The notes below the pieces were generated by a model. That model was not told where the DNA came from and did no database searches. It saw only the letters and a program-made list of their open reading frames with translations. From Solirubrobacterales bacterium (GTDB taxonomy: Bacteria; Actinomycetota; Thermoleophilia; Solirubrobacterales; 70-9), in the NCBI GenBank assembly GCA_020438295.1, contig JAGQUV010000001.1, positions 1 to 64,000 on the forward strand: a DNA stretch of 64,000 nucleotides. The letters run 5' to 3'. This document shows, piece by piece, positions 19,636-23,613 of the stretch. The position numbers and the translations under genes are program-made. Within the stretch, counting starts at the first letter, position 1. Each line of letters starts with the position of its first letter.

Positions 19636-21648
19636 CTACCTGACCAGGGACACCTCCATCGCCACCGGGGCGATCGCACCGGCCCCGCCGAGCATCGCGA
19701 GTATCCGGGCGACGTAGGCCCGGGTCTCCGGGTAGTCGGGAACGCAGTCGCAGGGGGAGACGGCCCCCGGGCCGGCGTTGTAGGCGGCGAGCGCCAGGGC
19801 CGGTGAGCCGAACCGTTCCAGCAGGTCCGACATCAGGTGCGCCTGCGCATTGATCGCGGCATCCGCGTCGAACGGATCCCGGAGCCCGTAGGCGGCGGCC
19901 GTCCCGGGCATGAACTGGGCGATCCCCTGCGCCCCGGCCGGCGAAACGGCCCGCCGGTCGAAGTTCGATTCGGCCAGGATCTGCGCCGCGATCAGGGCCG
20001 CCGAAACGTTCCATCTCATCGCTGCGGCCAGGATCGGACGACGGTAGCGGCCCGGGACGAAGCCGGGCAGGGCACCGGGAGAGGTCCGAGTCCGGTCGGC
20101 ACCCGAGCCGGTGACGCGATCGCCCGCCTCGGAACACGGCGGCGGACCGGTGGCCAGGCCGAAATGCCAGGGCTCCCAGCTGTACCGCTGCCGGAAGCCG
20201 AATCGGGACGCGTTGGCACGCAGCCAGCCATACGCCGACGGCGGCCCCAGGTCGAGCTCGGTCGCACAGCGGTGAAGCGAAGTGCCGGGCCGTGCGACCC
20301 AGGTCGGATCGGGGTTGGCCGCGAACAGGGCCGCCTGCTCGGCGTCCGAGCGGAAAGCCGAATTGATCGCCAGGGTCACGCCGGCCGCCGCGGCCGCCGC
20401 GGCCATCCGGTCGAACGCCGCCGCCACGTCCGGGCGCATCCCTCTGCCCTGCCGCTCGGCGAGCGGGCCGCCGTACCCGGCTCCACTGGCCATCCCCGGG
20501 ACCGCGCCCATGGCGAGCGGTGCTCCGACCATGGCCTCGGCCCAGCTTCCGGCAGCCGGCCTTCTCCGGCCTCCGGCCTCGACCGTGGTCCGGACCGCCA
20601 CCCGGGCGCGAACCGGGGCGTAGGAAAGCCGGTCCGGGAAGCCGACCGAAACGGTCAGCGGCGAGGCCCCGTTGGCTACCGCAAATCGCGTCGCCGCCAA
20701 CCTTGCCCGGGCCAGATAGACCGCCTTGCTCATATGGACCGGGTTGGGCAGACCGTTGGGCAGCGTGGGCGGTGCCATCAGCCGGGGCAGATCGTCTTTC
20801 ATCGAGCGCGCGGCCGACATCGCGGCCAGGTCAACCGTGCGCTGGGCCCTGCCCTTGCCGGTGATCGCCCCGGCGATCGCGACCAGGGCCACCGCCCCGA
20901 CGGTCAGGGCGAAGACCGCACCGAGGACCAGCGGAGTCGCCTGGCCCCGGTCGCCGGCCAGCCTGTCCCGAATCCACGCGCCGACCGTCCGGCCCGGCCC
21001 GGCGCGCCCGGCCCGCACCGCCGCAGCCGGAGCGGCAGCCACGGACGGCACCCGGTCGCTTTCCGATCGCGGCCGGTCGCCGTCGCGCGGCACCCGGCCG
21101 GCCCCGGCTAGGGCACGCGATGTGGTGATTCGCCCCGGAGTCCCGGTCACCAGGTCGACTCGATCGACCAGCCGACGGGCCTCGGCGATCGCCAACGAGA
21201 GCAGCGGATCGTCGGCCGGATCGCTTACACCGTCAACTACAATCGCCACCGAATCGAGGTGATCGTGCCCGATCTCGAGCAGCCGCCTGTACTGCTCCGG
21301 GGCGGACGCCACAACCCAGCCCGTCCCCGCGGGCAGGAGCCCGATCGCACCGAGCAGTGAATCGGCCGCCGAGCCGTCTCCGGGAAGCATCGCCACAACG
21401 ATCCGGCCCCGGGCGCTGGCGCGCAGCTCCGGGTACCCCGCGTCGAGCGCCGACTCGGCCACCTTGGCCGGGCCGGTCGAGACGACGGTCGCCGGCCTGA
21501 CCCGGCCGCAGCCGGCCTGGAACAGGACTACTGTCCCGCCGTCGCCGACCGCCCGGTTGGCGCTCACGGCAGCCGACTCGAGCACGCCTCCGACTCCCGC
21601 GGTCCCGGTGACCAGCAGGCGGATCGGACTGTCGCCGCGTCTGGTCAT
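19636..21648 (-). CDS. Fusion protein: unknown N-domain, TadG-like pseudopilin helix, M15 D,D-peptidase, SLT transglycosylase
   Basis: 670 residues. About 8-170 is an alpha/beta region I cannot assign (LLVTGTAGVGG start). Residues 235-262 are one hydrophobic helix in TadG-like context (DRGQATPLVLGAVF), followed by an extracytoplasmic stretch typical of Tad pseudopilins. Residues 400-500 form a VanY-type M15 peptidase with zinc ligands His459, Asp466, His495 and catalytic Glu492 (EPWHF). Residues 535-650 are a lytic transglycosylase with Glu560 (AESNF), GAQGIAQFMPGTA and AYNAGPG. All key residues are intact, so one polypeptide could cut both peptide and glycan parts of peptidoglycan. ATGA overlap with the TadE-like gene upstream. 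A frameshift-made fusion is unlikely because the frame is continuous, but Tad and hydrolase parts could also be two ancestral genes joined recently. Confidence 0.85.
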   Translation of the reverse strand: MTRRGDSPIRLLVTGTAGVGGVLESAAVSANRAVGDGGTVVLFQAGCGRVRPATVVSTGPAKVAESALDAGYPELRASARGRIVVAMLPGDGSAADSLLGAIGLLPAGTGWVVASAPEQYRRLLEIGHDHLDSVAIVVDGVSDPADDPLLSLAIAEARRLVDRVDLVTGTPGRITTSRALAGAGRVPRDGDRPRSESDRVPSVAAAPAAAVRAGRAGPGRTVGAWIRDRLAGDRGQATPLVLGAVFALTVGAVALVAIAGAITGKGRAQRTVDLAAMSAARSMKDDLPRLMAPPTLPNGLPNPVHMSKAVYLARARLAATRFAVANGASPLTVSVGFPDRLSYAPVRARVAVRTTVEAGGRRRPAAGSWAEAMVGAPLAMGAVPGMASGAGYGGPLAERQGRGMRPDVAAAFDRMAAAAAAAGVTLAINSAFRSDAEQAALFAANPDPTWVARPGTSLHRCATELDLGPPSAYGWLRANASRFGFRQRYSWEPWHFGLATGPPPCSEAGDRVTGSGADRTRTSPGALPGFVPGRYRRPILAAAMRWNVSAALIAAQILAESNFDRRAVSPAGAQGIAQFMPGTAAAYGLRDPFDADAAINAQAHLMSDLLERFGSPALALAAYNAGPGAVSPCDCVPDYPETRAYVARILAMLGGAGAIAPVAMEVSLVR

Positions 21649-21992
21649 CCCGGCTTTGCACTCGCGGTCGAGGTGATCTCGAGGCGCTCCGAGACCGGTC
21701 CGAACAGCGACGGCGGGCGGAGTTTCACTTGCACAGAGCCACCGCCGGTCCCGACCGAGATCCTGGACCGGGCCCAGCCCGGCAGCGCATCACGGACCGC
21801 TCGGTCGACCGGCTCGCCGCGAACCAGGGCCACCGCCCCCGCAGTTGCCGCTCCGTCGGCCAGCGAGGCCGCGTAACCGGTGGCGAGCAACTGGAAGCAG
21901 ACCAGCCCGGTCAGCAGCAGGACGACGGTTCCGGCCACCGCCTCGACCGAAGCCTGACCGGAAACCGCCGTCGGTCCGGCCCGGGGGTTCAA
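21645..21992 (-). CDS. TadE/TadF-like pseudopilin
   Basis: About 115 residues from a TTG at 21992, nine bases after the previous stop. The N-terminal SGQASVEAVAGTVVLLLTGLVCFQLLA is a pseudopilin-type segment with the Glu that follows the processing site in Flp/Tad proteins, then a small extracytoplasmic domain. The frame runs back to 22217 but that part overlaps the preceding TadE-like gene, so the start is uncertain. Stop overlaps the start of the fusion protein gene (ATGA). No Tad ATPase, prepilin peptidase or secretin-like gene is close. Confidence 0.65.
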   Translation of the reverse strand: MNPRAGPTAVSGQASVEAVAGTVVLLLTGLVCFQLLATGYAASLADGAATAGAVALVRGEPVDRAVRDALPGWARSRISVGTGGGSVQVKLRPPSLFGPVSERLEITSTASAKPG

Positions 21993-22000
21993 CCGGCGGT

Positions 22001-22384
22001 TCAGCTTTCCCCCAGTGAGCTGGAGCCGTACACCCGGGCCGCCGGCAGGCCGGGGATCAGCTGCGGGATCCTGACCCCGACCCGGACCCCGTCGTCCCTC
22101 GAGACCCGGAGGCCGGGCCTGAGCGGCGCCGGAAGTGCGTTCTCGGCCGCCCCCCGGGCAGGCTCGCCGGTCAGCACGGCCCGCGCTCCGGCTCGTGCGG
22201 CGAGGCCGGCGGACCACAGGGCATGCCCGGCCACCGCGATCTGGGCGGCGACCAGAACCGCCAGCAGGACGACCGGGATCGCCCCGATCAACTCGAGCGA
22301 GGCGGAACCGCTCCGTTCGGCGAGGCGGGCGGTACCGGTGGATCGACTTCCGGCCGGGCGGCCGGACGGGCTTCGGGTGGGCAT
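22001..22384 (-). CDS. TadE-like pseudopilin
   Basis: 127 residues from ATG 22384. A basic N-terminus leads to GSASLELIGAIPVVLLAVLVAAQIAVAG, a TadE-type membrane segment with the conserved Glu after the predicted processing point, then a soluble domain of about 70 residues. First of three overlapping genes that look like the tadE/tadF/tadG end of a tight-adherence pilus locus. An upstream in-frame ATG at 22405 would add seven residues. Confidence 0.7.
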   Translation of the reverse strand: MPTRSPSGRPAGSRSTGTARLAERSGSASLELIGAIPVVLLAVLVAAQIAVAGHALWSAGLAARAGARAVLTGEPARGAAENALPAPLRPGLRVSRDDGVRVGVRIPQLIPGLPAARVYGSSSLGES

Positions 22385-22447: not shown

Positions 22448-23257
22448 TCAGACGGAGATCCGCGAAGCCACCGGCGTATGGTCGGACAGCCTGATCAGGA
22501 GGTCGCTTTCGGTGTCGGGTACGTCCCGGCGGCTATCCGGCCAGGCGGTCGCCGCCACGGTCCGTTCCACACCGCGGGTCAGCAGGTGATCAATCGCAGC
22601 GTCGCCGGTGACGCCGCTCAGGCCGTACCGCTCCGACAGGTCCTCAAACAGGTCGCCGTCATCCGGGCGCAGGTTGAAGTCCCCGCCCAGCACGAGAGGG
22701 TCGTTTCCCGCCCACCGGTCGGCCAACCCGGCCGCCCTTGCCACGTCGCCGGCGGCCCGGGCGCCGGTGCCGGCGTGGAAGTTGGCCGCGCAGAGCCCGC
22801 ACTGGAGCCGGACCATCGATACCACCCTCCGCTCCGGAAGACGGCTCAGGACCGCGCTGCGATGCTCGACCACGGCCGAGCCCGGCCGTCCCCTGCGTAC
22901 CAGGATCAGGTTCGACCCTCCCTCCCAGCTGCCGGTGAGATGTGGTCGGTAGCGGGCCAGCGGCCAGGTCAGAGGCCGCATCCAGTTGCGCGAGGTGAGT
23001 GACGCCCGACCGTCGGCTCCGGTCGCGTCGGCCAGCGCCCCGATCCAGCGGGGTGGCACCTCCTGGAGCAGGGCGAGATCCCACTCGGCCGCTGCCAGCA
23101 GCGCTCGGAACTCGATCGAGAGGTCCCGGTTGACCAGCACGTGTCGGTCTCCCGCGACCGGCCTGCCGAGCAGTCTCCACCCGAGGCCGCCGCGATCGGG
23201 TTCCGGGGGACGGTCCCGGCCGTGGAACAGGTTCCAGGAGAGAAGCCGCCAGTTCAG
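22448..23257 (-). CDS. Endonuclease/exonuclease/phosphatase family protein, probable CTG start
   Basis: About 269 residues if begun at the CTG at 23257. Motifs in order: LLSWNLFHGRD (residues 5-15, catalytic Asn), LLQEVPPRW (metal Glu), NFHAG, GGDFNLRP, IDHLL and LSDHTPV, which is the complete DNase I-like active site. The first ATG/GTG/TTG in frame is GTG 23140, which would delete the SWNLFHG strand and its catalytic residue. The CTG overlaps the stop of the upstream membrane-protein gene as CTGA, the same geometry as the ATGA/GTGA overlaps elsewhere in this window. Substrate may be nucleic acid, a lipid or a phosphate ester. Confidence 0.75.
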   Translation of the reverse strand: MNWRLLSWNLFHGRDRPPEPDRGGLGWRLLGRPVAGDRHVLVNRDLSIEFRALLAAAEWDLALLQEVPPRWIGALADATGADGRASLTSRNWMRPLTWPLARYRPHLTGSWEGGSNLILVRRGRPGSAVVEHRSAVLSRLPERRVVSMVRLQCGLCAANFHAGTGARAAGDVARAAGLADRWAGNDPLVLGGDFNLRPDDGDLFEDLSERYGLSGVTGDAAIDHLLTRGVERTVAATAWPDSRRDVPDTESDLLIRLSDHTPVASRISV

Positions 23258-23613
23258 TAGCTCTTGGCCTCCGAGACGACCAGCCAGATCCCGATCCCGG
23301 CCGAGCCGAGCAGGAGGATCCAGGCTAGCGTCCCCAGGCCCGACTCGAACATCTTCGAGGATCCGGCGACCATCAGGACGACCAGTCCGACCGATGAATA
23401 GAGGACCGCCCGGCGTGACACCGGCAGCGAATCGAGGGTCAGGCTGTTGGCCCGGGCGAGCCTGAATACGGCGAGGGTCAGGACCACCAGGAAGGCCATC
23501 GTGACCGCGGTCAGGACGGCCTCTGCCACATCGCCGCCGCGCGGCAGGAACGCCACACCCAGGGCCAGGACGGCGATGATCGCAATATTGCGGACGACAA
23601 CCATCGGGGCCAT
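23254..23613 (-). CDS. Small four-helix membrane protein, unrecognised
   Basis: 119 residues with four hydrophobic segments near 5-22, 30-50, 68-85 and 92-112; a short basic loop lies between helices 2 and 3. I do not recognise the family. The ATG comes one base after the pit stop and the GGGGATAG stretch spanning that stop serves as ribosome-binding site, so it is co-translated with the transporter. A role in phosphate transport is only suggested by position. Confidence 0.7.
   Translation of the reverse strand: MAPMVVVRNIAIIAVLALGVAFLPRGGDVAEAVLTAVTMAFLVVLTLAVFRLARANSLTLDSLPVSRRAVLYSSVGLVVLMVAGSSKMFESGLGTLAWILLLGSAGIGIWLVVSEAKSY

What the first reader, a model, noticed from the sequence alone, without database searches (positions are those of the whole stretch)
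19636..21648. TadG-like, M15 peptidase and lytic transglycosylase in one protein
One continuous 670-residue frame carries a Tad pseudopilin-type helix, a VanY-type zinc peptidase with all ligands (His459, Asp466, His495, Glu492) and an SLT domain with Glu560, plus an unassigned 190-residue N-domain. A pilus-anchored enzyme cutting both stems and glycans would be able to open the wall at the site of pilus passage. I know of no described protein with this arrangement.
Basis: partly seen in the sequence, partly recalled or inferred. Interest (0 to 1): 0.66.

Follow-up and report, generated by a model that had tools for sequence, protein, structure and literature searches.

The report
Pilus protein with two wall-cutting domains
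A membrane protein of a Tad-type pilus machine in a little-studied group of soil and water bacteria carries two cell-wall-cutting enzyme domains, and this joined gene is kept across dozens of genomes although no wall-cutting enzyme had been reported for Tad pili.

Summary
Window 19636-21648(-) is one 670-residue frame with a TadG/Rv3654c-type helix (235-291), a VanY-type M15 domain (392-500; VanYB Z 14.6, rmsd 1.2) and an SLT lytic-transglycosylase domain (about 529-656; Z about 18). Catalytic H459/D466/E492/H495 and E560/S561 are invariant in 35/35 relatives. It is no artefact: the Tad-VanY-SLT fusion recurs throughout the order (55 of 61 relatives match) and in a sister family, mostly near uvrC, including the isolate Conexibacter arvalis. 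No full-length match was found outside the class. The 'unassigned' N-domain has a MinD/ParA fold and is probably a degenerate TadZ/CpaE-like protein; it is a separate gene in several relatives. Directly upstream lie two TadE-like pseudopilins with processing motifs (G|xxxxE); the TadG helix lacks that Glu. The matching CpaB-CpaF-TadB-TadC motor sits elsewhere, beside mraZ-rsmH. In one relative NlpC/P60 replaces the M15 domain at the same locus. A 2025 paper states that no peptidoglycan hydrolase is known for Tad pili. Best explanation: a TadE-TadE-TadG complex whose TadG loosens the cell's own wall for the Tad filament. Activity and localisation are inferred. VanY-type enzymes usually trim stem ends, so the SLT half probably does the opening.

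The parts
22001..22384 (-). TadE-like pseudopilin 1, prepilin motif RSG|SASLE (Glu at +5); ATG start assumed, ORF as listed extends to 22405
   Evidence: NF041390 TadE_Rv3655c E 1.2e-4, below its curated cut-off; motif scan
21645..21992 (-). TadE-like pseudopilin 2, motif VSG|QASVE (Glu at +5); TTG start assumed, 8 bases after TadE1's stop
   Evidence: NF041390 E 0.0029, below its curated cut-off; motif scan; matches the separate 105-115 aa genes of relatives
19636..21648 (-). Whole fusion gene, 670 aa; its ATG overlaps the TGA of TadE2 by 4 bases (ATGA)
   Evidence: matches in 55 of 61 relatives
21079..21648 (-). N-domain, residues 1-190: degenerate MinD/ParA-fold, probably TadZ/CpaE-like; predicted cytoplasmic
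   Evidence: AlphaFold2 pLDDT 90.4, pTM 0.88; Foldseek 3ea0 ParA family E 1.4e-4; Z 10-11 to MinD/ParA; separate gene in L014, L015, L023, L025
20776..20946 (-). Tad/TadG-type membrane helix, residues 235-291 (RG|QATPL, no Glu at +5)
   Evidence: PF13400 20.4 bits, TIGR03816 E 1.4e-5; helix 237-291 in model; +5 never Glu in 35/35
20473..20775 (-). Pilin-like alpha/beta module and linker, residues 292-392
   Evidence: helix 308-325 and strands 333-375 in model; 'pilin-like' is my reading of that order of elements
20149..20472 (-). M15 VanY-type zinc peptidase domain, residues 393-500; H459, D466, H495 zinc ligands, E492 catalytic
   Evidence: PF02557 E 4.1e-13; VanYB 5hnm Z 14.6, rmsd 1.2 over 109 residues; residues invariant 35/35
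19681..20064 (-). SLT lytic transglycosylase domain, residues 529-656; catalytic E560
   Evidence: PF01464 E 8.6e-19; Slt/MltF Z about 18; E560/S561 invariant 35/35

Best explanation
This is the TadG component of a Tad (type IVc) pilus-type system in which TadG carries a two-domain peptidoglycan hydrolase. The protein sits in the membrane by its Tad helix, N-end inside. Inside is a degenerate TadZ/CpaE-like (MinD-fold) module, likely a docking or positioning element. Outside are a pilin-like module, an M15 peptidase and an SLT transglycosylase. With the two processed TadE-like pseudopilins upstream it would form the TadE/F/G complex of the Tad motor (CpaB-CpaF-TadB-TadC, beside mraZ-rsmH; single prepilin peptidase elsewhere). 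When the motor pushes this complex outward, the enzymes would loosen the cell's own wall just where the filament must pass. Shown by sequence or model: domains, conserved catalytic residues, the TadE pair, the order-wide fusion, the matching motor lacking its own TadE. Inferred: topology, enzymatic activity, physical assembly with the motor, own wall as target, and that a filament is made.
For: Domains and folds. Catalytic residues invariant in 35/35. dN/dS 0.08-0.23 in both enzyme domains in the pairs tested. Two TadE-like ORFs with G|xxxxE directly upstream in most of 23 loci scanned, one in the rest. Motor loci of fusion genomes have CpaF, mostly with TadB, TadC and CpaB, and mraZ/rsmH where the stretch reaches them; no TadE-like ORF was found in 32 of them, whereas 13 of 14 other Tad loci in the class hold a Flp- and/or TadE-like ORF, so the uvrC-linked trio fits as the missing minor pilins. 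CpaFs of fusion genomes group apart from the others. Of 40 class genomes with the fusion, 35 have a near-full CpaF; four relatives without the fusion lack it too (my tally). Prepilin peptidase in 57/61 relatives. M15-to-NlpC/P60 swap at the same locus: the position keeps a stem peptidase plus a transglycosylase. N-domain MinD/ParA fold.
Against: No enzymatic, localisation or interaction data. The trio and the motor are in different loci. No Flp major pilin found by PF04964 or PF14029 or a motif scan at the motor loci of the window's order, though the sister family has a Flp-like 92-94 aa ORF there. Five fusion genomes of the sister family lack a clear CpaF, perhaps through incomplete assembly. 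VanY-type enzymes normally trim stem ends. The Tad helix lacks Glu+5, so it may not enter a filament. An SLT subgroup in the window's genus has an altered second motif.
Confidence: 0.55

Rival explanations
1. Cell-cycle wall remodelling device: the Tad-type motor and the TadG hydrolase act on the cell's own septal or polar wall, placed by the MinD-like domain, with no long filament. It would be a pseudopilus-borne wall hydrolase linked to division.
For: Motor beside mraZ-rsmH, with an ftsI-like gene near in the window's genome, across the order; MinD-fold N-domain fused or adjacent; no major pilin found in the window's order.
Against: The sister family with the same fusion has a Flp-like pilin ORF beside TadC, which suggests a real filament. 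Linkage to mraZ-rsmH may be mere synteny. The uvrC locus has no division genes.
Confidence: 0.2
2. Pilus-tip weapon or tool against other cells: TadE/F/G form the tip of a Tad pilus, and the tip's hydrolases attack neighbouring cells' walls.
For: TadEFG-type minor pilins form variable tips in the Myxococcus Kil pilus and are proposed to do so in other Tad systems (PMC12075869); CpaL, the TadG orthologue of Caulobacter, is modelled at the tip (PMC12607857); both enzyme types act on peptidoglycan.
Against: Near-universal in the order and well conserved, unlike the variable tips of predators; a two-enzyme payload also suits boring out through the own wall; no immunity-like gene was noticed beside it (not searched systematically).
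Confidence: 0.13
3. Ordinary membrane-anchored wall-turnover enzyme that borrowed a Tad helix as signal anchor and has no tie to the Tad motor.
For: The motor is at another locus; Glu+5 is missing; five fusion genomes lack a clear CpaF.
Against: TadE-like pseudopilins stay beside it in two groups of the class, and a TadZ-like domain or gene in the window's order; fusion and CpaF mostly come and go together; a pilin-like module follows the helix.
Confidence: 0.12

Closest known systems
Actinobacterial Tad/Flp system (Rv3654c-Rv3660c of Mycobacterium; models TIGR03816, TIGR03819, NF041390)
   Same: TadZ-like protein, TadA ATPase, TadB/C, TadE-type small pilins and a TadG/Rv3654c-type helix protein
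   Different: There the Rv3654c-type protein is about 100 residues with no enzyme (TIGR03816 model length 109); here it carries M15 and SLT domains, the genes are split into two loci, and no Flp pilin was found in the window's order
CpaL (Caulobacter) / TadG (Aggregatibacter), tip-type minor pilins with a vWA domain
   Same: Pilin-like module joined to a large extracellular domain, beside two small minor pilins (PMC12607857)
   Different: Payload is a two-enzyme peptidoglycan hydrolase instead of an adhesive or mechanosensing vWA domain; motif G|xxxxL instead of G/A-x4-F/E; N-terminal MinD-fold domain
Bifunctional wall hydrolases of Gram-positive conjugation systems (CwlT; VirB1-like), from general knowledge
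   Same: One membrane-tied protein with a glycan-cutting and a stem-peptide-cutting domain serving an apparatus that crosses the wall; the G381 variant even has NlpC/P60
   Different: Conjugation (type IV secretion), not Tad; anchor and M15 domain differ; not homologous as a whole as far as known
VanYB / LdcB (M15B carboxypeptidases)
   Same: M15 domain 392-500 superposes on VanYB with rmsd 1.2, 32% identity, ligands kept
   Different: Carboxypeptidases not tied to a pilus machine
Slt70/Slt and MltF (lytic transglycosylases)
   Same: SLT domain, Z about 18, catalytic Glu-Ser
   Different: No Tad helix or M15 domain

Membership tests
Tad (type IVc) pilus system, TadG/Rv3654c-type component | Tad/TadG-type N-terminal membrane helix | tested here: met
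   PF13400 20.4 bits (cut-off 22.3) and TIGR03816 E 1.4e-5, both below curated cut-offs in the window protein; relatives L089 and L217 exceed the PF13400 cut-off
Tad (type IVc) pilus system, TadG/Rv3654c-type component | Beside TadE-type minor pilins with prepilin motif | tested here: met
   two TadE-like ORFs with G|xxxxE; model scores below curated cut-offs
Tad (type IVc) pilus system, TadG/Rv3654c-type component | CpaF/TadA ATPase, TadB, TadC and prepilin peptidase in the genome | tested here: met
   L051 CpaF TIGR03819 E 1e-99 (below its curated cut-off) and T2SSE over cut-off; TadB/TadC by similarity to L052's T2SSF proteins; CpaB by TIGR03177 and SAF; Peptidase_A24 at G000:C87
Tad (type IVc) pilus system, TadG/Rv3654c-type component | Flp-type major pilin | tested here: inconclusive
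   none found in the window's genome with PF04964 or PF14029, nor at its motor locus by motif scan; Flp-like 92-94 aa ORF in the sister family
Tad (type IVc) pilus system, TadG/Rv3654c-type component | A filament on the cell surface | not testable with these tools
   needs microscopy
M15B peptidase (VanY) | Zinc ligands H, D, H and catalytic E on the VanY fold | tested here: met
   H459, D466, H495, E492 invariant 35/35; VanYB Z 14.6
M15B peptidase (VanY) | Carboxypeptidase activity | not testable with these tools
   needs an assay
Lytic transglycosylase (SLT) | Catalytic Glu-Ser and YNAG motif on the SLT fold | tested here: met
   E560, S561, Y623, N624 invariant 35/35; Z about 18
TadZ/CpaE (ParA/MinD superfamily), N-domain | MinD/ParA fold | tested here: met
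   Z 10-11 to MinD/ParA, but the same to SRP GTPases; Foldseek best 3ea0 E 1.4e-4
TadZ/CpaE (ParA/MinD superfamily), N-domain | Walker A loop | tested here: not met
   no K-T/S loop in the window's N-domain; stand-alone relatives keep GCGATT-like loops without Lys
TadZ/CpaE (ParA/MinD superfamily), N-domain | Direct sequence match to a TadZ/CpaE model | tested here: inconclusive
   no Pfam or NCBIfam hit above cut-off

The most novel reading that the evidence does not exclude
In this order the Tad machine has been turned into a wall-opening device: a short pseudopilus without a major pilin pushes a TadG-borne two-enzyme hydrolase into the cell's own wall at a site set by a fused MinD-like domain, in step with the division gene cluster.
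Probability: 0.2. Interest if true: 0.82.

Novelty: new variant of a known kind. Interest (0 to 1): 0.62.

Why it matters
How Tad pili get through peptidoglycan is an acknowledged gap: a 2025 structural paper notes that no hydrolase or transglycosylase has been reported for them, and says TadG has not been characterised (PMC12307814). Here the TadG-type subunit itself carries the enzymes, with conserved active sites, throughout a bacterial order that includes a cultured species in which it could be tested. It would also give an example of a TadZ-like protein and TadG joined in one chain.

Tried and rejected
Sequencing or assembly error: rejected by recurrence in many independent assemblies and an isolate. 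'Separate genes in relatives': true only of the N-domain, not of the Tad-M15-SLT part in the loci examined. Direct sequence matches of the N-domain (Pfam, NCBIfam, PDB sequences) gave nothing significant; the fold comparison and the stand-alone relatives gave the answer. TadZ itself did not appear in the fold lists, which proves nothing. Flp pilin in the window's order: not found with two Pfam models, a motif scan of the motor loci or the sister family's pilin.

Full report
WHAT IS THERE. The frame 19636-21648(-) is exactly as described: 670 codons, one frame. Its ATG overlaps the TGA of the upstream ORF by four bases (ATGA), as in a translationally coupled operon. Pfam finds SLT (539-630, E 8.6e-19), VanY (404-496, E 4.1e-13) and Tad (235-281, 20.4 bits, cut-off 22.3); NCBIfam finds the Rv3654c TadE-like model at 233-286 (E 1.4e-5, below cut-off). 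A predicted model (mean pLDDT 80.6) gives a long helix 237-291, a pilin-like alpha/beta module, and two enzyme domains. The M15 domain superposes on VanYB with Z 14.6, rmsd 1.2 over 109 residues, and the SLT domain on Slt and MltF with Z about 18.

IT IS NOT AN ARTEFACT. The protein has matches in 55 of 61 relatives, 40 of 43 good genomes. In a 119-genome sample of the class I count 37 genomes with the Tad-VanY-SLT fusion (most full-length; G043 is frame-broken and a few are cut) and three more with fragments, all in the window's order or in family f5 (my tally). In a 396-genome sample of the phylum, the listed matches outside the class cover only the SLT part. Named carriers are the isolate Conexibacter arvalis DSM 23288 and Solirubrobacterales MAGs; the C. 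arvalis protein scores VanY E 8.2e-16 and SLT E 2e-19. In most loci looked at the gene lies near uvrC, with rapZ, GAPDH and PGK close by, in both groups. Catalytic H459, D466, E492, H495 and E560, S561 are invariant in 35/35 aligned sequences. dN/dS in the two enzyme domains is 0.08-0.23 in the pairs tested; the N-domain is looser, 0.35-0.72.

THE N-DOMAIN. Residues 1-190 fold with high confidence (pLDDT 90.4, pTM 0.88) and resemble ParA/MinD proteins: Foldseek best 3ea0, a ParA family ATPase, E 1.4e-4; Z 10-11 to MinD, ParA and AF2382, though SRP GTPases score as high. In several relatives of the same family it is a separate gene just upstream (L014, L015, L023, L025). In another family the stand-alone protein has a GCGATT-like loop, an LVLDV strand and a VLNRA strand; profile comparison links these to the window's domain (hhalign probability 86% directly, and 97% with an intermediate set). 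With its place beside TadE and TadG, this makes a degenerate TadZ/CpaE-like protein the best reading. It lacks a Walker A loop, and no TadZ model matched it directly.

THE TAD CONNECTION. Directly upstream lie two TadE-like proteins (NF041390, below cut-off) with the motif G|xxxxE. Most of 23 loci scanned show two such ORFs, the rest one. The fusion protein's own motif has no Glu at +5 in 35/35 (Leu in 29). The window's genome has one clear Tad ATPase, far away: response regulator, histidine kinase, CpaB, CpaF (TIGR03819 E 1e-99), TadB and TadC beside mraZ, rsmH and an ftsI-like gene. The same layout recurs, and these CpaFs group apart from those of other Tad loci in the class (split support 87/75). 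No TadE-like ORF was found in 32 such motor loci, while 13 of 14 other Tad loci carry Flp- and/or TadE-like ORFs. So the uvrC-linked trio fits as the missing minor pilins. In the class sample 35 of 40 fusion genomes have a near-full CpaF, and G052, G074, G510 and G517 lack both (my tally). A prepilin peptidase is present. No Flp-type pilin was found in the window's order except in genomes with a second, different Tad locus, but family f5 has a Flp-like 92-94 aa ORF beside TadC, so the ancestral system may well have made a filament.

A NATURAL DOMAIN SWAP. In genome G381 the gene at the same place (TadE-like ORF upstream, uvrC downstream) encodes Tad, NlpC/P60 (E 2.9e-17) and SLT (E 1.1e-22), all over Pfam cut-offs. 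It is one genome on one contig, but it suggests that the position demands a stem peptidase next to a transglycosylase, whatever its fold.

HOW IT PROBABLY WORKS. TadE/F/G-type minor pilins are proposed to form pilus tips (PMC12075869), and CpaL of Caulobacter, a TadG orthologue, is a pilin module joined to a vWA domain and modelled at the tip (PMC12607857). By analogy the trio here would prime a Tad filament and carry wall-cutting enzymes at its front or base, so that the cell's wall is loosened where the filament passes. Whether TadG is built into the filament or stays in the membrane is open: cleavage after G235 would free the N-domain, as in relatives with two genes; no cleavage would keep a cytoplasmic docking or positioning domain on the enzyme. 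A caution: VanYB and LdcB are carboxypeptidases, so the M15 half may trim rather than open; the SLT half is the likelier cutter. Rivals are a division-linked wall remodeller without a filament, a tip weapon, and an enzyme unrelated to the motor.

NOVELTY. In the open-access library searched, a 2025 paper says that no peptidoglycan hydrolase or lytic transglycosylase has been reported with the Tad pilus and that TadG has not been characterised (PMC12307814); further searches found no such protein. Subscription journals are mostly missing from that library. The parts are known; the combination and its lineage-wide conservation appear new.

Noticed in passing
L217:1966-3252 (-), genome G381: Orthologous locus with NlpC/P60 in place of the M15 domain between Tad and SLT.
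   Followed up: partly
L005, L007-L013, SLT domain: A subgroup of the window's genus has GNGIAFGIAAFTP in place of SPAGAQGIAQFMP while keeping the catalytic Glu-Ser; specificity or activity may differ.
   Followed up: no
window 23254-23613 (-): A 119-residue membrane protein of unknown family lies near the TadE pair in many relatives' loci, in more than one family of the order.
   Followed up: no
L051:8299-9779 (-): A response regulator and a short histidine kinase sit upstream of the CpaB-CpaF-TadB-TadC motor genes, also in many relatives.
   Followed up: partly
L200:2665-2940 (-) and homologues in family f5: Flp-like pilin with a five-residue leader and a proline-rich tail beside TadC; no counterpart found in the window's order.
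   Followed up: partly
L210 (G263): A second, long-branched CpaF with an internal TAG stop in a genome without the fusion, perhaps a decaying system.
   Followed up: no
L069 / L046 (G040), upstream of the fusion core: An upstream ORF in place of the N-domain reads like an M23-type peptidase (HLHFELRV motif, by eye), possibly another wall enzyme at this locus.
   Followed up: no
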